DNA of 39,951 nt from Candidatus Gastranaerophilales bacterium (GTDB taxonomy: Bacteria > Cyanobacteriota > Vampirovibrionia > Gastranaerophilales > Gastranaerophilaceae), in the NCBI GenBank assembly GCA_944325825.1, contig CALVBP010000016.1, positions 1-39,951 of the forward strand, written 5' to 3'. Both the position numbers and the translations under genes were made by a program. Below the pieces are notes generated by a model. It was not told the DNA's origin and ran no database searches. It saw nothing but the letters and a program-made list of their open reading frames with translations. Numbering within the stretch: position 1 is the stretch's first letter; each line of letters opens with the position of its first letter. Positions 27,200-39,753 of the stretch are shown here, one piece after another.

Positions 27200-27296
27200 A
27201 ATATTATTTATTATCGCCTTAAATTAAGTAATATTCTGATAAAAATAAATTTTGCATAAAAAATTGCTTTTTAATTTTACAGTTTTTTATAAATGA

Positions 27297-27342
27297 GTGT
27301 ATTTCTTTCTTTTTATTCAGATGTAAAAAGAAAGAAATACAC
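27297..27342. repeat. A/T hairpin repeat type T, copy 2
   Basis: GTGTATTTCTTTCTTTTT (27297-27314) pairs perfectly with AAAAAGAAAGAAATACAC (27325-27342) across a 10-nt loop. It is followed by CAAAGAAAGAAA, also seen after copy 1 at 3870-3905. Confidence 0.8.
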
Positions 27343-27395
27343 TCAAAGAAAGAAATGCTCTAAATATTAGAAAAAAGCTGCTTAAATATTGAAAG

Positions 27396-31799: not shown

Positions 31800-32198
31800 A
31801 TGAAAATAAGTGCAATCAATAACAATCAATTTAAAACAGTTAATAATAACAAAAAAAATAATAATGTTTCTTTTAATGGTATAAGAGAAGTTCTTAATAA
31901 GGAAGTTTCTACAGTTATCTCCCCCAAAATTGCTGCTTTATCATTTACAGCACTCGTTATTGCATCACCATTTATTGCAGTATTTACACATAGAGCTGAA
32001 AACAAAAAAACAATTAATGAAATCGGGAATTTTATAAATTCTGAAAATTATAATAAAGATTCGTTAAAAGTAAAAGATTATACAAACGATGGAGTTTTAG
32101 ACTTTGAGCTTGTTGATAAAGATGGCAACAAAGTTATATATGATGCTAGTAATAAACAATTATTAGAATATACAACAACATTACAAGAAATAAAATAA
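31800..32198 (+). CDS. Small hypothetical membrane protein with early SFNG motif
   Basis: The 132-aa product begins with an Asn-rich leader and NNVSFNGIRE (about residues 21-30). A single hydrophobic segment follows (about 43-63, ISPKIAALSFTALVIASPFIA). The tail has repeated D-x-D/N acidic turns (YTNDGVLDFELVDKDGNKV) resembling a calcium-binding or beta-strand repeat. Function unknown. AAAGGATG precedes the ATG. It is monocistronic, as a strong terminator follows. Confidence 0.78.
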   Translation: MKISAINNNQFKTVNNNKKNNNVSFNGIREVLNKEVSTVISPKIAALSFTALVIASPFIAVFTHRAENKKTINEIGNFINSENYNKDSLKVKDYTNDGVLDFELVDKDGNKVIYDASNKQLLEYTTTLQEIK

Positions 32199-32204
32199 TA
32201 GATT

Positions 32205-32235
32205 AAAAAAGCCGGAACTAATCCGGCTTTTTTAA
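32205..32235. terminator. Terminator of the 31800 gene
   Basis: AAAAAAGCCGGA (32205-32216) pairs perfectly with TCCGGCTTTTTT (32222-32233) across a 5-nt loop, a textbook terminator usable on both strands. Confidence 0.92.
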
Positions 32236-32323
32236 TGCTTTGATTTATAAAATAATAATAGCTTAAAACCCTTTATTTGCAGTTGTTTTACTCTTTTTTG
32301 TTCCTCAATATGTTACATAGGTG

Positions 32324-32347
32324 GTAACAAAATGGTAATTATGTTAC
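32324..32347 (+). promoter_or_regulatory. Dyad site C
   Basis: Arms GTAACAAAAT (32324-32333) and ATTATGTTAC (32338-32347) around centre GGTA. The reverse complement differs from site D at 1 of 24 positions. Candidate recombinase or regulator binding site. Confidence 0.6.
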
Positions 32348-32521
32348 ATGTGACATAAACCCTGTAAAGCCTAAAAATTGCCTATCTTGGCTAGAATTGT
32401 AAATTTTTCGTTACAAATTTTAATTACACCATTAATTTTTATCCATTCTCCAAAGTGCTACAAATTAGCATTTATAGGCTGTTGATGCTTATTTCTTACC
32501 CTGTGTTATGTTACATCCATC

Positions 32522-32545
32522 GTAACATAATTACCATTGTGTTAC
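32522..32545 (-). promoter_or_regulatory. Dyad site D, inverted relative to C
   Basis: Arms GTAACATAAT (32522-32531) and ATTGTGTTAC (32536-32545) around centre TACC, the reverse complement of the GGTA centre in C. It ends 33 nt before the ATG at 32579. Confidence 0.6.
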
Positions 32546-32578
32546 ATGTGTAGAAAATTTTGAATGAAAGGTGTAGTA

Positions 32579-32827
32579 ATGAACAGCGTAGCAGGAAATT
32601 ATAGTGTATCAAATTGTCAGCAATTAGCTTTTAAAGGGTATAAAGAAGCTCCTCAAAAAATTGTTAGAAATCCAGAACTAATAAAAGCCATTAGGGATGT
32701 AAGTGTTGACACTTTTTGGAAAAGAGTTAGAATGATACCTTTTGAGGTTACTATGATTACAATTGCGAAAGGTTTATTTGCCATCAAGAAAGGTGTTGAA
32801 AAAGGCTGTAATATTTTTAAGAAATAA
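32579..32827 (+). CDS. Small hypothetical protein with early AFKG motif
   Basis: 82 aa, starting MNSVAGNYSVSNCQQLAFKG; an earlier in-frame ATG at 32564 is less likely because AAAGG lies 7 nt before 32579. The C-terminal half is basic with a hydrophobic segment (TMITIAKGLFAIKKGVEKGC). Function unknown. It is the first gene of a run of five or six small genes read in one direction and stands right behind dyad site D. Confidence 0.68.
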   Translation: MNSVAGNYSVSNCQQLAFKGYKEAPQKIVRNPELIKAIRDVSVDTFWKRVRMIPFEVTMITIAKGLFAIKKGVEKGCNIFKK

Positions 32828-32855
32828 GTTTAATTTATAATAAAGGAGTAAACAA

Positions 32856-33245
32856 ATGGTAAATTTTGCAGATTGTGTGTCAAAAGTTCAATGTCGTAAT
32901 TTAGTAACAAATACACCTACAAAAGATGGAATAAGGGCTTTATTAAAAGCTACAACCTCAGTTAATAAGACTTCCCAAAACGGTTTTAAATTGGGTGGTT
33001 TACCAACTGTAGTACAAGATAGTGTAATGTTTTCAATGGGTGCTAAAGAAAAGAGTCAAAATTGGCTACAAAAATTTATTAAAAAAGGTCTATTGCCTAA
33101 TGACAAACCTTTTGCTACCGAAATATTGGATTCAAAATTTGAACCTTGCGGGATTCCTGTTGGAACTAAAGAGATGTTTAATAGCAACATAGCTAAAGCT
33201 CTAGAGGTGCCCGTTGATACATTTGTAAAAGCGGTTAAAAATTAG
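32856..33245 (+). CDS. Small hypothetical protein
   Basis: 129 aa, no family recognised. It has TFVKAVKN at the end and a segment VQDSVMFSMGAKEKSQNWLQKF in the middle. AAAGGAG is 7 nt before the ATG at 32856, and the gap to the previous gene is 28 nt, so an operon is likely. The early region has no clear F-x-G motif. Confidence 0.7.
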   Translation: MVNFADCVSKVQCRNLVTNTPTKDGIRALLKATTSVNKTSQNGFKLGGLPTVVQDSVMFSMGAKEKSQNWLQKFIKKGLLPNDKPFATEILDSKFEPCGIPVGTKEMFNSNIAKALEVPVDTFVKAVKN

Positions 33246-33295
33246 GTTAATTTATTCTTATTTAATTAAATAATTACATAGAAAGGCTAAATATT

Positions 33296-33988
33296 ATGAA
33301 TTTAACAGTTAATCAACTAAAGTTTAATGCCTATTATAACTATCAACATAATAAAAATAATACGACACCGACATTTAAAGCATTAAGTACAATTGCTAAA
33401 AAGAATTCATTAGCGTTAAAGTGTGCAGCTGCATTAGGTGCTGCAGGGATTGCAATAAACAACACATTTTATATTAATAATGAAAATCGTAAAATGAAAG
33501 ATTTTACAAAGGAGCAAATGAACGCAATACTTCAAAAAAAATATGAAACTTACGAAAAAGAGCATGCTAGTATAACAGAAAAAGAACTTGCTTTAAGATT
33601 TTTAACAAGCAAATATACCCAGAACGTGCCTTTGAGTGAAGTAAGTGCAACTGCCTTCGAATTGTTTGAGCTTCGTACTTGTCCTTGGGAAATGGATGAA
33701 AAAGTTTGTTATTATGAAGACTTTTTTCATGAATGGGGTAGTTTAGATGAAAATGGAAAACTTTGTACGCAAAAAGCAAAGGATATTCCTATGGATTATT
33801 TTTGTGGAAATTTTGAATGGATATGGGATATATTAAGATTAAAAACTCCTGAAAATAATAAAGAAAATATTGTTGATGGATTAAGGAAAGAAGGTATTGA
33901 ACTTGATCCAGAAAAAACAGTTTTTGAACAACTTGATATATTTGCTGATGCCCTTGCAAAGACAAAATTTGAGCAATGGAATAGATAA
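33296..33988 (+). CDS. Hypothetical protein with early TFKA motif
   Basis: 230 aa. It starts MNLTVNQLKFNAYYNY, then PTFKAL at about residues 24-29, a short hydrophobic segment (about 43-54, AAALGAAGIAIN) and a helical body with E-rich pairs. The first 8 codons are identical at the nucleotide level to those of the 34028 gene (ATGAATTTAACAGTTAATCA shared, with the preceding ATATT), suggesting a duplicated 5' end. Function unknown. Confidence 0.7.
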   Translation: MNLTVNQLKFNAYYNYQHNKNNTTPTFKALSTIAKKNSLALKCAAALGAAGIAINNTFYINNENRKMKDFTKEQMNAILQKKYETYEKEHASITEKELALRFLTSKYTQNVPLSEVSATAFELFELRTCPWEMDEKVCYYEDFFHEWGSLDENGKLCTQKAKDIPMDYFCGNFEWIWDILRLKTPENNKENIVDGLRKEGIELDPEKTVFEQLDIFADALAKTKFEQWNR

Positions 33989-34027
33989 TTTAATACAAAA
34001 TATAATTATATAGAAAAGACAGATATT

Positions 34028-34402
34028 ATGAATTTAACAGTTAATCAACCAACAAGTACAAATTTTAAAGCAAAACTAACAATGGCTACAAAAGAAAAAT
34101 TTGCTAAAGAAGCTGGTACATTTTGGGCAGAACAATTAGAAAAAGCCAAACCAACTATAGAGAAAATAGTTAAAGATACAAAAGATGTGAAAGAAATCTT
34201 AGTGCATCCTGTTCTTAGTTCAGATAAATTTACTCCGTCAGATAGAATTTTAATCTCTGCACTTAATAATAAAAATAGACCTTTTACACTAGAAGCAAAC
34301 CCACAATTTATTATATTTGATAAAACAGGAAAATCTTTTAACGAACACATTGTAGATTTTTTAAATACTTTTATTGACGGGGCAAAATCATTGAACTTTT
34401 AA
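34028..34402 (+). CDS. Small hypothetical protein with early NFKA motif
   Basis: 124 aa. It begins MNLTVNQPTSTNFKAKL and has a helical middle (LEKAKPTIEKIVKDTKDVKE) and a C-terminal strand-helix part (FIIFDKTGKSF). The N-terminus matches that of the 33296 protein, which supports a common translocation or sorting leader. No recognised domain. It follows the 33296 gene by 39 nt. Confidence 0.68.
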   Translation: MNLTVNQPTSTNFKAKLTMATKEKFAKEAGTFWAEQLEKAKPTIEKIVKDTKDVKEILVHPVLSSDKFTPSDRILISALNNKNRPFTLEANPQFIIFDKTGKSFNEHIVDFLNTFIDGAKSLNF

Positions 34403-34476
34403 GCAAGAAAAATCAAAACATAAAATAGATAAGGCTTTAATTTTTACTAAATATAATAAAATATAGAGGTTAGAAT

Positions 34477-34632
34477 ATGGCAGTAACTTTAAACAAAATT
34501 CCACAAAAATTACCATTGAATAATAAATTAAAAATAATTATTCCCTCTTTAATGTTAGCTAGTAGAGTTGCAGCTACAACTTTAGCTAATAAAAATGACA
34601 CATTATCAGCAGAAACTAATATATATGGATAA
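34477..34632 (+). CDS. Short leader-like protein (51 aa)
   Basis: A 51-aa product (MAVTLNKIPQKLPL...) with a basic start, a hydrophobic run (KIIIPSLMLASRVAATTLA) and a polar C-terminus, resembling a signal peptide without a mature part. AGAGGT lies 7 nt before its ATG. Its stop overlaps the start of the next gene by 8 nt (ATGGATAA), so it is likely translated and coupled to it. It is too short to name. Confidence 0.6.
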   Translation: MAVTLNKIPQKLPLNNKLKIIIPSLMLASRVAATTLANKNDTLSAETNIYG

Positions 34633-35086
34633 AAACCCCACTTCTCAAGCTATGCAAGCAGGATTTTTAGGATTGTTTGGTCTAGGTTTAGGTTCAAGCA
34701 AAAGGAAACAAGCTAAAGAATGGGAAAATATCAGAAAATCCATTTCTACTTTGTATGATTGGGCTGAAAACCCCAATAAGAAAATTGAATTTATTATTAA
34801 AAAACTTGAAACAGAATCTAAAGACCACGAGCTTTCAGCATTAGCAAAAGAATTTCTAATCTATACTAAAAACTATGTAGTTCCATATAGAACATATGAG
34901 CACGCTAAGTGGCGAGATACGGATACTTATGTTTTTATTAATAAAGTTCAAATTGTTACAAAAATGGCATTATATCCAGAGCTTGCAACGGAAGAGGAAA
35001 AACAAAATATAGAAAATACTATTGAAAATTGTAAAAAATATATTTCCGGAGAAAGAATTTTTAAAAAAGGGAAAAACAGTATTTAA
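34625..35086 (+). CDS. Hypothetical protein coupled to the 34477 gene
   Basis: 153 aa from ATG 34625, the codon overlapping the previous stop; an upstream ATG at 34595 is in frame but within the previous gene and has no ribosome site. It begins with a Gly-rich hydrophobic piece (QAGFLGLFGLGLGSS), then a helical, charged body (about residues 30-150, with YTKNYVVPYRTYEHAKW). No family recognised. It ends exactly where the convergent metallopeptidase gene ends (35086/35087). Confidence 0.65.
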   Translation: MDKNPTSQAMQAGFLGLFGLGLGSSKRKQAKEWENIRKSISTLYDWAENPNKKIEFIIKKLETESKDHELSALAKEFLIYTKNYVVPYRTYEHAKWRDTDTYVFINKVQIVTKMALYPELATEEEKQNIENTIENCKKYISGERIFKKGKNSI

Positions 35087-36415
35087 TTATTCCCTAGGGT
35101 TTTCTCTAGCTTCCCAACGATTTTCTATATAATTATAAACAGCATAATTTGGAAGCTCAGAGTAATTTCGTGTTAGCCAATCATTCATATCAGTACTTAG
35201 TAATTCTCTATTTTTTAAATATTCCGTTACAGGAACACTATATCGCTGATAGTTCTCATAACCTTGTAACTTGCCTTTTTCTATGAGTTTTGCGACTGTA
35301 AGCATAGCTAAAGATTCACAAGTCCATTCTTCTTCTTTAGAGTTTAATCTCTCCATACCCCATTGAGAGTGTCTAATACAATGGTTGGCTTCGTGCATCA
35401 ATAAAGCAACGACATTTGCTACATTATCACTTTTCTGACAATATGTACTAAAAACTATACCATTATTAACGGCTTTCGCAGCTCCCGTTGGATCATCATC
35501 ATAGGTAATATTATCTAAAAAACTTAATATTTTTTCCCTGTCAGAATCTGTCATTGCCAAATCACATAAATCATCTTCCGTAAAATTCTTTAATTCAGCC
35601 TTTAATATAGTAACAGCTTTTTCAACATTAGCTTTTAATTGTTCTAATGGTACTTGTTGAGGAGCTTGTACTTCTTGAGTTGGTGGAGTTGGTACAATTT
35701 CTACCACTTCTCCTCTTGTCATACCCCTAATTAAATCATCATTATTCGCTAGTTCACTACATTTTCGTGCTCCAATTGTATCATCAGGAACAAAGTTCGA
35801 TGCATTTTTTATTGCATAATAGTTAATTTCTTCTTCACTTGCGTTTGGCATAAGTTTAGTAAGTAAATCTACTAGCAAACTCGTTGTCATATCGCCAACT
35901 GAAACACTTTGTTGAGGTAATGTTAATCCATTTTTAGATAGCTCTGCCATAACTTCATTAATTTTTGACTTATCAACATTCGATGGAAGTTCTAATTTGG
36001 CAATATTACTCTGTATAACATTGATTGCTTTAAGAGTATTTGTTCTATTCTGCAACGCAATATCATTTGGATTTCCTTCTACATTTCCTGTTTGATTAGG
36101 ATTTGCAGTAGGAGATTCATTTAAAGGCTCGCCTTTTGCAAGTTTACAAATATTATTCCAGAGAGTTTGGCTAAATTTTATTACTCCTTGAAAAACTACA
36201 AAATTATCTTTACCACTACCACTTGCATTACTTCCCTTATGATAGATTAATTCTTTACCTTCAGCTTTATTTTGTTCATTTTCGTTTTTAACTTGTTCTA
36301 GAATCTTAGTCCAAACATTCCACGTTATATTAGAAGTGTTAATATTCTCAGCACCAAGTTTTGTCTTAATAGCACTTATTAAACCCTGATTTTTATTTAC
36401 ATTAATATCTACCAT
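35087..36415 (-). CDS. Putative zinc metallopeptidase, HExxH type
   Basis: 442 aa. HEANH at residues 341-345 (VVALLMHEANHCIRHS) is a zincin-type metal site; a Glu about 20 residues downstream (EEEWTCES) could be the third ligand. The N-terminal third is helical with a W-x-x-W-x-K-I segment (residues 32-38) and a GSG/Asn-rich linker, then a Pro/Gln-rich linker near 240-256. No signal peptide is seen. I cannot name the family, and it could be inactive or have another role. The start codon is ATG 36415, preceded by AAAGAAG; dyad site A lies 30 nt upstream. Confidence 0.68.
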   Translation of the reverse strand: MVDINVNKNQGLISAIKTKLGAENINTSNITWNVWTKILEQVKNENEQNKAEGKELIYHKGSNASGSGKDNFVVFQGVIKFSQTLWNNICKLAKGEPLNESPTANPNQTGNVEGNPNDIALQNRTNTLKAINVIQSNIAKLELPSNVDKSKINEVMAELSKNGLTLPQQSVSVGDMTTSLLVDLLTKLMPNASEEEINYYAIKNASNFVPDDTIGARKCSELANNDDLIRGMTRGEVVEIVPTPPTQEVQAPQQVPLEQLKANVEKAVTILKAELKNFTEDDLCDLAMTDSDREKILSFLDNITYDDDPTGAAKAVNNGIVFSTYCQKSDNVANVVALLMHEANHCIRHSQWGMERLNSKEEEWTCESLAMLTVAKLIEKGKLQGYENYQRYSVPVTEYLKNRELLSTDMNDWLTRNYSELPNYAVYNYIENRWEARENPRE

Positions 36416-36444: not shown

Positions 36445-36478
36445 AACATGTAACACAATGTAAATTGTGTTACATGTT
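36445..36478 (+). promoter_or_regulatory. Dyad site A (perfect palindrome)
   Basis: Core arms GTAACACAAT (36450-36459) and ATTGTGTTAC (36464-36473) around centre GTAA; with 5 more bases each side the palindrome has 15-bp arms (36445-36459 and 36464-36478), no mismatch. Read as arms of 13 with an 8-bp spacer (ATGTAAAT) it has the layout of a tyrosine-recombinase core site such as lox. It lies between the recombinase and metallopeptidase genes. Confidence 0.7.
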
Positions 36479-36512
36479 TTATATCGGCTTTTTTTTGAAA
36501 AACTTTAGGATA

Positions 36513-36544
36513 TTGTTACAATTGAGCAGAAATTGTTACAATTA
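36513..36544 (-). repeat. Direct repeat at the end of the recombinase gene
   Basis: ATTGTTACAATT occurs at about 36513-36524 and again at 36532-36543, with GAGCAGA between. The motif contains the same TGTTAC element as the dyad sites. It might be an arm-type binding site, which is not testable here. Confidence 0.4.
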
Positions 36545-37090
36545 CAAATTAAACGCAAGCAAACTTTCATCAATAATTTCTTGGCTAATCCCAATATATC
36601 TAAGGGTTACAGCAGGCTTTGAGTGGTTGAATATTCTTTGCAGTAGTGCAATATCTTTTGTCTTCTTATAAAAATGATAGCCAAAAGTCTTTCTTAGAGT
36701 GTGTGTTCCAATATTTACTTTGATTTCCAATTTATCGCACGCACGATTAAAGATTCTATAAGCCTGAATTCTTGTTAATGGTTGATTAATACCCCTTTGG
36801 CTTTGAAAAAGCCAATCATCAGGATTCATCCCTGCAATATATTCTTTTAAATACCACTTGTAAGAATCAGAAAGAGGGAAACGCTTGTACTTACCAGTCT
36901 TTCCCTCTTTTAATTCTACATATTCACTATCCATAACGTCTTTAACTTTTAGGCTTAATAAGTCCGATATCCGAAGCCCAATGTTTATGCCCATTATAAA
37001 CATCATAAAATCTCGAAAACGCCAACGTATTAAGTAATTTTTGATTCTTTCAATATCGTCTAAATCTCTGATTGGTTCTACAAATTCCAT
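36542..37090 (-). CDS. Catalytic-domain-only tyrosine recombinase
   Basis: 182 aa with the full catalytic set: R40 (GLRISDLLSL), K64 (GKTGK), H130 and R133 (HTLRKTFGYH), H156 (NHSKPAVT) and nucleophile Y165 (TLRYIG). It lacks the N-terminal core-binding domain found in phage integrases and is FimB/FimE-sized, the class of small enzymes that invert promoter segments. AGGAGG lies 8 nt upstream of the ATG. Site A is downstream of the gene and site B upstream, in opposite orientation. Two copies of TGTCCATAT (37112-37120 and 37152-37160) lie in its promoter region. Confidence 0.88.
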   Translation of the reverse strand: MEFVEPIRDLDDIERIKNYLIRWRFRDFMMFIMGINIGLRISDLLSLKVKDVMDSEYVELKEGKTGKYKRFPLSDSYKWYLKEYIAGMNPDDWLFQSQRGINQPLTRIQAYRIFNRACDKLEIKVNIGTHTLRKTFGYHFYKKTKDIALLQRIFNHSKPAVTLRYIGISQEIIDESLLAFNL

Positions 37091-37186: not shown

Positions 37187-37194
37187 TAAGCAGA

Positions 37195-37354
37195 AAAATC
37201 AGCGCCCGGGGAATAACCCGTGAGCAGGCAATAAAAAATAGCAAGGGAGAGATTCGAACTCTCGACCTCACGGACTGTGCCGAAGCAAAACGATTAAGTA
37301 TCGTTTTGCGAGAGGGAGCCGTGCGCTCCAAGAGCGGCAGGCGAAAACGTGAGC
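37195..37354 (-). repeat. 160-nt structured repeat, copy 1
   Basis: Nearly identical to 37375-37534 (period 180, differences at 37229 and 37320 only). It has a perfect 10-bp hairpin GCAAAACGAT (37285-37294), loop TAAGT, ATCGTTTTGC (37300-37309); a GGAGC/GCTCC stem; and, on the minus strand, a tRNA-like T-arm GAGAG-TTCGAAT-CTCTC (37247-37263) with a 7-nt 3' acceptor strand and A discriminator (37239-37246), followed by a T-run. No matching 5' half of a tRNA exists in the repeat. Confidence 0.8.
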
Positions 37355-37374
37355 CAGCAGCGATTGGGATTTGA

Positions 37375-37534
37375 AAAATCAGCGCCCGGGGAATAACCCG
37401 TGAGCAGGTAATAAAAAATAGCAAGGGAGAGATTCGAACTCTCGACCTCACGGACTGTGCCGAAGCAAAACGATTAAGTATCGTTTTGCGAGAGGGAGCT
37501 GTGCGCTCCAAGAGCGGCAGGCGAAAACGTGAGC
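37375..37534 (-). repeat. 160-nt structured repeat, copy 2
   Basis: Same as copy 1 at +180. Hairpin arms at 37465-37474 and 37480-37489, T-arm at 37427-37443. The two substitutions relative to copy 1 fall outside the stems. It is separated from copy 1 by 20 nt. Confidence 0.8.
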
Positions 37535-37584
37535 CTGTAGTAAAATAACACCTGGTTTGACTATTTTGTACATGTAGTTTGATA

Positions 37585-37756: not shown

Positions 37757-38746
37757 CTAATGTATTTCTAAAAATTTGTATCCATTAAAATGTACCATGT
37801 GTTCTGGCGTTTCAGCTATCCAAACCTCAGTTTCCCAAGCTATATCTAAAATCCATTTTTTGAAATCTTTTTTTGTCAAAAAAGCTGTTATGAAAATAAT
37901 CTCCGCCGTACATTTATTCAATTGTTCTTTTAATTTTCTTACTCTTATTTCACTCATTGGACCTGCACTATGTACTGCCTCGCATAAAAATAACAGATTT
38001 TTGTCTTTACTATAAGCAATCACATCAGGAAGTTCTTCGTGCTTTATATTAAAACATTTTAATTCTTCTAATTTTTTATCATCCTTGTATAAAAACTTGT
38101 TTGTAGTGTCACCAATATACAACACTTGCGAATTAAAACCAAATTTGGTAAGGAAATTCTCTACAATTTCTTTTTGTAGTACGTTATGTTCTCCAAATGA
38201 CAGTTCAATATTTTCACCAGAAGGTAGTGCAACAGGAATCTTTTGTAAATTTCTTCTGTGTTCCATTTCTTCTTTAAGAGATTTATTTTCAAATAAAAAC
38301 TTATTTAATTCTACTTCCCAGTTTGATTTGCCATATGCCTTTATTAAAGAAGCAAACAGAGGATTTAATCCATATCCTCGAGTAGGATTATTAGTTGCCT
38401 TTTCTTCCAACATACAGGAGTTAAAAACAATTCCAGCAGATACTAATAATATCAAATCTTTTCTTCTTATATCATCGTACGAGCCAGACGAAATATTTTC
38501 AGAATAATATTTATTTTCAAATTCAATAATATCTCTTGTTTTTAGAAAATAATTATCATTAATTGTTAATACTTCTGAAAAAGAATTTTTTATATTACCT
38601 ACGGCTAATAAAGCTAAAACCATACGCTCTTTTCTTCTATCAGACAAATTATCGAGTGGAATGCCTATGAAATTTAAAATATCCAACGTATCAAAAATTA
38701 TTTTCTGAAGTTTATTATTTTTGTTTCCAGTTAATTTTATTCTCAT
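37757..38746 (-). CDS. Type II restriction endonuclease, BsuBI/PstI family
   Basis: 329 aa. The C-terminal half matches the BsuBI/PstI catalytic domain: VLYIGDTTNK near residues 208-217, then LPDVIAYSKDKNLLFLCEAVHSAGP (about 239-263; written here as PD at 240-241 and E256), FITAFLTKKDFKKW and IAWETEVWIAETPEHMVHFNG near the end. The N-terminal 170 residues form the helical domain typical of the family. It starts at ATG 38746, overlapping the stop of the methyltransferase by 4 nt (ATGA), so translation is coupled. Known members cut CTGCAG; the target here is not readable from the sequence. Confidence 0.88.
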   Translation of the reverse strand: MRIKLTGNKNNKLQKIIFDTLDILNFIGIPLDNLSDRRKERMVLALLAVGNIKNSFSEVLTINDNYFLKTRDIIEFENKYYSENISSGSYDDIRRKDLILLVSAGIVFNSCMLEEKATNNPTRGYGLNPLFASLIKAYGKSNWEVELNKFLFENKSLKEEMEHRRNLQKIPVALPSGENIELSFGEHNVLQKEIVENFLTKFGFNSQVLYIGDTTNKFLYKDDKKLEELKCFNIKHEELPDVIAYSKDKNLLFLCEAVHSAGPMSEIRVRKLKEQLNKCTAEIIFITAFLTKKDFKKWILDIAWETEVWIAETPEHMVHFNGYKFLEIH

Positions 38747-39753
38747 ATCGCCTCTAAAATATTTAGTTGTTTGCTATAACAATAATTATCATTTTGTTTG
38801 CATAAATTATAGTATGAATCTTTTATTGCAAGAGCAATTTTATATGCCATAAGGGGTGGAACCGCATTGCCTATTTGATTAAATTGCTCGGTTTCGTTTC
38901 CACAAAATTCAAACCAATCGGGAAAACTTTGAAGTCGTGCAGCTTCTCTATGTAGTAAACGTCTTCTTTTACCATCTTTCAATTTTATTCTTTGCATATC
39001 ACTAGTTGCTCCTGCTAGATTCCTACAGGTAAGAGTTCTTGCTGGCTTATCAGGATGTAAATCTCTAGGAACTTTGCAACAAGATGCTTTTTCATATCTT
39101 GCTATATATTCATCTTGAGATTTTGTTAAAAACTTACTATCTGGTGGGGTTGTATACATCATATCGCCAATAGCATCTTCTACATTTACTTTTTTATTTT
39201 CTTTGTTTGGGAAAGTAAAATTATTTTTATGCCCTACTACAATTAATCTCTCTCTATTTTGTGGAACCCCATAATCAACAGCATTCAGGCAATTAACACT
39301 TATTTTATATCCTAAATTGGTTAATTCATTTATTATTAATTCTAAATACCATTTGTGTGAATACATCAAATTCCTAACATTTTCAAACATAAAAATATTA
39401 GGTCGAATTGTCTTAATCGCATCTATAAATATAGGGAAGCCGTCTCTTGCGTCTTCCATACCTTTTTGCACGCCCCTAATACTAAAAGGCTGACAAGGTG
39501 GACCTCCTATCACAATATCGGCTTTGGGATATCTAAAGCCAACGAATAATTTCTCATTGTAGCAAATGCCTGATAAATTCGCATTATATGTATCAGAAGC
39601 CGCCCTATTCATTTCGTAACCCACTGTTGTAAATCCTGCTGCTTCAAAGCCTAGTGACAACCCTCCACAACCAGCAAATAGATCAAGTACAATAACTTCA
39701 TTATTGTCTTTTTTGGGTCTCAAATTCTCGTTTATTATTTTTAGAAATGACAT
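38743..39753 (-). CDS. DNA (cytosine-5-)-methyltransferase
   Basis: 336 aa, all the m5C motifs are present: I DLFAGCGGLSLGFE (residues 24-37), IV GGPPCQPFS with catalytic C87, VI ENVRN (124-128), VIII QNRERLIVVGH, IX in the REAARLQSFPD segment and X QIGNAVPPLMA. The target-recognition stretch between VIII and IX is short. Known BsuBI/PstI-family systems carry an N6-adenine methyltransferase, so a C5 enzyme as partner is unusual. GAGGG is 6 nt before the ATG. It is upstream of the endonuclease, the order that protects the host first. Confidence 0.95.
   Translation of the reverse strand: MSFLKIINENLRPKKDNNEVIVLDLFAGCGGLSLGFEAAGFTTVGYEMNRAASDTYNANLSGICYNEKLFVGFRYPKADIVIGGPPCQPFSIRGVQKGMEDARDGFPIFIDAIKTIRPNIFMFENVRNLMYSHKWYLELIINELTNLGYKISVNCLNAVDYGVPQNRERLIVVGHKNNFTFPNKENKKVNVEDAIGDMMYTTPPDSKFLTKSQDEYIARYEKASCCKVPRDLHPDKPARTLTCRNLAGATSDMQRIKLKDGKRRRLLHREAARLQSFPDWFEFCGNETEQFNQIGNAVPPLMAYKIALAIKDSYYNLCKQNDNYCYSKQLNILEAI

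What the first reader, a model, noticed from the sequence alone, without database searches (positions are those of the whole stretch)
32324..32545. Inverted dyad-site pair C/D: possible invertible 174-bp segment upstream of a small-protein cassette
Sites C and D share 23 of 24 positions as inverted repeats, and their non-palindromic centres correspond (GGTA in C, TACC in D). Matching centres are what site-specific recombination by a tyrosine enzyme requires and are not needed for operators. The interval lies directly before a run of small genes (32579-35086), and a FimB-sized recombinase with the same site type stands 4 kb away. This suggests a phase-variable promoter (inverton). I cannot identify a strong promoter in the interval, so direction of control is open.
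Basis: partly seen in the sequence, partly recalled or inferred. Interest (0 to 1): 0.8.

Follow-up and report, generated by a model that had tools for sequence, protein, structure and literature searches.

The report
Invertible DNA switch with matched ends
The two mirror-image 24-base sites bound a small piece of DNA that a nearby enzyme most likely flips to switch genes on or off, and they belong to a large, apparently undescribed family of such switches that control surface proteins in a group of non-photosynthetic gut relatives of cyanobacteria.

Summary
Sites C and D match at 23 of 24 positions as inverted repeats, with reverse-complementary centres, far beyond chance. They are recombination sites, not operators. 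Across relatives, 97 of 101 distinct site pairs have exactly reverse-complementary 4-nt centres, none identical, over 28 centre words; shuffles give about 13, at most 22. Inversion between these sites is seen directly twice. At an orthologous locus in two species (L123/L341) the flanks are about 98% identical and the interior is 195/198 identical only when flipped. Two paralogous pilin loci in one genome show the same. The tyrosine recombinase at 36542-37090 is itself bracketed by a matched pair (A/B) and lies in a clade whose members carry this site type. A/B also holds a sigma28-type promoter facing the 442-aa gene. Relatives use such segments before pilin-like adhesins and giant proteins; Lachnospiraceae carry a recombinase-bearing version at csrA-flagellin. 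Not shown: flipping at C/D itself (three C/D-like relatives share the window's orientation) and a convincing promoter inside C/D. Verdict: a DNA-inversion switch, a new variant of a known kind.

The parts
32324..32347 (+). recombination site C, centre GGTA
   Evidence: 23/24 inverted match to D
32522..32545 (+). recombination site D, centre TACC
32348..32521 (.). 174-bp segment predicted to invert
   Evidence: bounded by a matched inverted pair; same-class segments seen in both orientations
32311..32316 (+). extra TGTTAC half-site 7 bp outside C
   Evidence: also 7 bp from the distal site in 12 of 33 pilin segments
32509..32514 (+). extra TGTTAC half-site 7 bp inside D
   Evidence: also present in G007 relative L121
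32378..32405 (+). weak candidate promoter TTGCCT-16-TAAATT facing the small genes
   Evidence: TTGC(CT) block conserved in four C/D-like segments; unproven
32202..32236 (.). terminator of the upstream gene, isolating the C/D leader
32564..35086 (+). run of five small genes, first in line to be switched (32564/32579-32827, 32856-33245, 33296-33988, 34028-34402, 34595-35086)
   Evidence: no Pfam/NCBIfam families above cut-off
36542..37090 (-). 182-aa tyrosine recombinase, catalytic domain only
   Evidence: PF00589 2.2e-25; R, K, HxxR, H, Y in Xer alignment
36450..36473 (+). recombination site A, centre GTAA
37163..37186 (+). recombination site B, centre TTAC (1 mismatch)
36481..36507 (-). sigma28-type promoter TAAAGTTT-N11-GCCGATAT inside A/B, reading out over site A
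   Evidence: genome has a FliA/WhiG sigma factor
35087..36415 (-). 442-aa protein gene directly behind site A, predicted target of the A/B switch (weak Zn-protease similarity)

Best explanation
C and D are crossover sites of a site-specific DNA inversion system. A small tyrosine recombinase, most likely the one at 36542-37090, binds the palindromic arms GTAACAnAAT / ATTnTGTTAC, cuts around the asymmetric centre and flips the 174 bp between C and D. The matching centres keep each site paired with its own partner. Because C/D is the only leader between a terminator and the small-gene run, flipping most likely changes transcription of that run (inferred). The recombinase gene lies inside a second segment of the same kind (A/B), which also carries a sigma28-type promoter that now faces the 442-aa gene, so the enzyme can invert its own gene and promoter. 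Shown: the matched-centre rule, inversion at same-class loci, the recombinase-site association. Inferred: that this enzyme acts on C/D, and that C/D switches the small genes.
For: 97/101 pairs with exact reverse-complementary centres, 0 direct, 28 centre words, shuffle maximum 22 (76/78). C/D-like relatives changed their cores in concert: TGGTAA, CAATAA, TTAGAA, each matched in both sites. Orthologous locus in G005/G007: flank 345/351, interior 195/198 inverted versus 111/217 same orientation. Paralogous loci in G050: interior 363/378 inverted versus 204/436. More one-flank cases. Recombinase faces away from a homologous giant gene in L140 and toward it in L122 and L196. Site type follows recombinase clade. 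A bare DNA-pattern scan returned a recombinase-family ORF within 500 bp in 29 of 49 non-Gastranaerophilales or viral loci.
Against: No flipped copy of C/D or its three C/D-like relatives was seen. No convincing promoter, sigma70 or sigma28, lies in C/D. All data are metagenome assemblies; no reads were available. Genomes carry several related recombinases, so which enzyme acts on C/D is not proven. All closely spaced sites in G049 share one centre, so centres do not always separate pairs.
Confidence: 0.8

Rival explanations
1. C/D was an inversion switch but is now locked: sites persist, flipping is rare or lost, and the segment acts as an ordinary leader.
For: Window, L121, L123 and L128 have the segment in one orientation; no clear promoter in either orientation.
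Against: Cores of C and D still match and have changed in concert between species, which is hard without continuing recombination; the recombinase is intact with all catalytic residues.
Confidence: 0.12
2. The sites are operators for a dimeric regulator such as a transcription factor or an autoregulating recombinase.
For: Near-perfect dyads in a leader; extra half-sites at a fixed 7-bp spacing.
Against: Operators need no matching asymmetric centres, yet 97/101 pairs match; interiors are found inverted with breakpoints at the sites.
Confidence: 0.04
3. The site pairs are ends of small mobile elements (MITE-like), the recombinase-bearing pair being the autonomous copy.
For: Several copies of nearly equal length per genome (181, 283, 402 bp); a related segment lies before different genes in different genera (L123, L332).
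Against: Copies sit at the same place before paralogous pilin genes, fitting duplication of gene plus switch; inverted sites give inversion rather than excision; no target-site duplication or empty site was found, though this was not searched systematically.
Confidence: 0.04

Closest known systems
fimS switch with FimB/FimE (E. coli type 1 pili)
   Same: Small tyrosine recombinase flips a short segment upstream of surface-structure genes
   Different: Recombinase scores far below the FimB/FimE family cut-offs (40.6 of 222 bits); sites are 24-bp palindromes with a 4-nt centre; many dispersed switches; recombinase gene inside its own segment
Salmonella Hin segment
   Same: Recombinase gene lies inside an invertible segment that carries a promoter facing outward
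   Different: Hin is a serine recombinase; here a tyrosine recombinase with a sigma28-type promoter, and additional segments lacking the enzyme gene
Bacteroides fragilis Mpi invertible promoters
   Same: Many dispersed invertible promoters with one site motif controlling surface structures in a gut commensal
   Different: Mpi is a serine recombinase; different sites, hosts and targets
C. difficile RecV switches (flg, cwpV)
   Same: One tyrosine recombinase acts on several dispersed switches (PMC5386303, PMC2784873)
   Different: Different site architecture; recombinase not bracketed by its own sites, as far as I know
Invertons found by PhaseFinder surveys (PMC11892184)
   Same: Intergenic invertible promoters flanked by inverted repeats near surface genes in gut bacteria
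   Different: No cyanobacterial or Melainabacteria case is mentioned in that paper

Membership tests
Inverton (invertible regulatory DNA between inverted repeats) | inverted repeats with matching crossover region | tested here: met
   C/D 23/24; 97/101 pairs match
Inverton (invertible regulatory DNA between inverted repeats) | both orientations observed, same-class loci | tested here: met
   L123/L341 and L177/L178
Inverton (invertible regulatory DNA between inverted repeats) | both orientations observed at C/D itself | tested here: inconclusive
   four C/D-like loci, one orientation; no reads available
Inverton (invertible regulatory DNA between inverted repeats) | promoter inside the segment | tested here: inconclusive
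   clear in pilin segments and A/B; only weak candidates in C/D
Tyrosine recombinase superfamily | Phage_integrase domain with R-K-HxxR-H-Y | tested here: met
   PF00589 2.2e-25; alignment to Xer proteins
FimB/FimE subfamily | passes the NCBIfam cut-off for tyrosine-type DNA invertase | tested here: not met
   40.6 bits against cut-off 222
Hin-type switch | serine recombinase inside its own invertible segment | tested here: not met
   arrangement alike for A/B, but the enzyme is a tyrosine recombinase
Integron cassette system | passes the IntI family cut-off | tested here: not met
   41.0 bits against cut-off 265
sigma28 (FliA/WhiG) regulon | promoter TAAAGTTT-N11-GCCGATAA | tested here: met
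   A/B: 1 mismatch of 16; sigma factor in genome above cut-off; not met for C/D

The most novel reading that the evidence does not exclude
A family of self-inverting tyrosine-recombinase genes, each carrying its own promoter (often sigma28-type) and bracketed by palindromic sites with a 4-nt address, acts in trans on many dispersed switches for pilin-like adhesins and giant proteins in gut Gastranaerophilales. The recombinase-bearing form also occurs in Lachnospiraceae, where it controls csrA-flagellin.
Probability: 0.45. Interest if true: 0.82.

Novelty: new variant of a known kind. Interest (0 to 1): 0.72.

Why it matters
Gastranaerophilales are common, mostly uncultured gut bacteria whose surface biology is little known. 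This gives a concrete, read-testable switch system in them: one site motif finds dozens of predicted ON/OFF switches in front of pilin-like adhesins and giant proteins. It also links them to a recombinase-bearing switch at flagellin genes in Lachnospiraceae, an immunologically important gut group. The centre-matching rule lets anyone find such switches from sequence alone.

Tried and rejected
Operator-pair reading: rejected for the class by centre matching and observed inversions. MITE reading: not excluded in detail but disfavoured. Integron-like reading: enzyme far below the IntI cut-off. A sigma28 promoter in C/D: searched, none. Strain-level flipped copy of C/D: genus DNA search gave only the G007 relative L121; the IMG/VR pattern scan gave 12 loci, none recognised as a relative of C/D. 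Automatic ON/OFF calling of pilin segments is rough: 4 ON, 23 OFF, 6 ambiguous; L177/L178 were ambiguous by score though clearly opposite by alignment. Literature searches found no report of phase variation in Melainabacteria or Gastranaerophilales; only an open-licence library was searched.

Full report
Observation. The window is contig C16 of a 1.85-Mb genome. Named records carrying the same sites in genomes of its genus are Candidatus Gastranaerophilales MAGs (for example CALUWH01, CALVAO01, CATLDC01); the window's own record is not named. Sites C and D are as described: 23/24 inverted identity, 174 bp apart, centres GGTA/TACC. Four sites occur in the window against 0.09 expected. The other two, A and B, bracket the recombinase gene and also match (GTAA/TTAC). 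The genome has one further exact site, on C12, next to a decayed recombinase and a 1857-aa gene.

The centre rule. In 65 genomes of the genus, 29 carry the site and none carries the backward-read control; numbers reach 49 exact sites in one genome (G064). Neighbouring sites form inverted pairs with reverse-complementary centres: 76 of 78 distinct pairs, 97 of 101 with all collections, no direct match, 28 centre words, shuffle mean 12.8 and maximum 22. In C/D-like loci of G007, G005 and G002 the six-base cores differ from the window (CAATAA, TTAGAA) yet match within each pair. Two sites that change in concert, centre included, are expected for recombining partners and not for operators.

Inversion seen. 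(a) L123 (G005, a goat-colon MAG) and L341 (G007, a roe-deer MAG) are the same locus: an HU-like gene, a 222-bp segment, then a giant gene with an identical start. Upstream DNA is 345/351 identical; the interior is 195/198 identical only after inversion, 111/217 otherwise. (b) In G050, L177 and L178 share both flanks and a prepilin-type adhesin start, and the interiors are 363/378 identical only when inverted; a TTGCAA-17-TATTAT promoter faces the gene in one and away in the other. (c) Further cases share one flank. (d) Recombinase-bearing segments are found in both orientations relative to homologous giant genes: away in L140, toward in L122 and L196.

Targets. In G049, G050 and G064 many segments precede genes with a prepilin N-terminus; some encode prepilin-YadA head-S74 chaperone hybrids. 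A rough promoter census gives 4 ON, 23 OFF, 6 ambiguous. Two segments (L335, L346) have pilin genes with identical starts on both sides, an either/or arrangement. Recombinase-bearing segments precede genes of 1112-2877 aa without known domains apart from EF-hand-like repeats in one.

Enzyme. The 182-aa protein is a catalytic-domain-only tyrosine recombinase, below the cut-offs of FimB/FimE, XerC/D and IntI models. In a tree of 41 relatives, GTAACA-type sites, TTAACA-type sites and absence of sites follow clades (3 changes against 16.4 when shuffled). In Roseburia, Eubacterium and other Lachnospiraceae the pair brackets the recombinase (726-888 bp, matched centres) directly before csrA-flagellin (L232, L242, L258, L309) or before flagellin (L277).

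Promoters. Many recombinase-bearing segments, including A/B, carry TAAAGTTT-N11/12-GCCGATA(A/T) or a near match 5-21 bp (111 bp in two) from a site, reading outward. This is the textbook sigma28 consensus, from my own knowledge. Six genomes of the genus searched each have one FliA/WhiG sigma factor above the curated cut-off. In the window it faces the 442-aa gene. C/D has no such motif; the best candidate facing the small genes is a weak TTGCCT-16-TAAATT, with the TTGC block conserved in four relatives. The terminator at 32202-32236 leaves the C/D leader as the only place for the promoter of the run; this is inference.

Limits. No reads could be examined; assemblies are MAG consensus. Flipping at C/D itself is not shown and the four C/D-like segments share one orientation. 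Which of the genome's related recombinases acts on C/D is inferred from proximity and clade. The literature search covered only an open-licence library.

Noticed in passing
37193-37540: Two tandem 168-bp copies (98% identical) that look like tRNA 3' ends (T-arm motif GAGAGATTCGAACTCTC), right next to site B; ARAGORN finds no complete tRNA. Possible scars of repeated integration.
   Followed up: no
37757-39753: BsuBI/PstI-type restriction enzyme and C5 cytosine methylase pair beside the recombinase segment.
   Followed up: partly
31800-35086: Small proteins share a short N-terminal motif (SFNG, AFKG, TFKA, NFKA) with no known family; the same motif recurs in relatives downstream of such switches.
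   Followed up: no
L142, L177: Proteins that join a prepilin N-terminus to YadA head repeats and a Peptidase_S74 chaperone domain, each behind a predicted switch.
   Followed up: partly
L144:3479, L131:8063, L150:3331, L339:2717: In a class of segments the sigma28-like promoter lies outside, facing the segment, with the gene on the other side, so the segment would act as an invertible leader; a T run follows the palindromic site in some copies, as in a terminator.
   Followed up: partly
L277:2980-3030: In Lachnospiraceae the site is extended into a 19-bp perfect hairpin followed by T's (-24.3 kcal/mol), so a recombination site may double as a terminator.
   Followed up: partly
L318, L323, L315, L326: Viral contigs carry a single copy of the site 90-200 bp from a recombinase of this family, perhaps for dimer resolution or integration.
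   Followed up: no
L335:2837-3799, L346:1876-2657: Segments of 939 and 758 bp with pilin genes of identical start on both sides: either/or switches.
   Followed up: partly
L160:2996-3200: One G064 pair with mismatched centres (ACCC/GAGT), perhaps the product of recombination between different pairs or an assembly chimera.
   Followed up: no
27294-27345: Perfect 22-bp inverted repeat with 8-nt loop after the UvrA-like gene.
   Followed up: no
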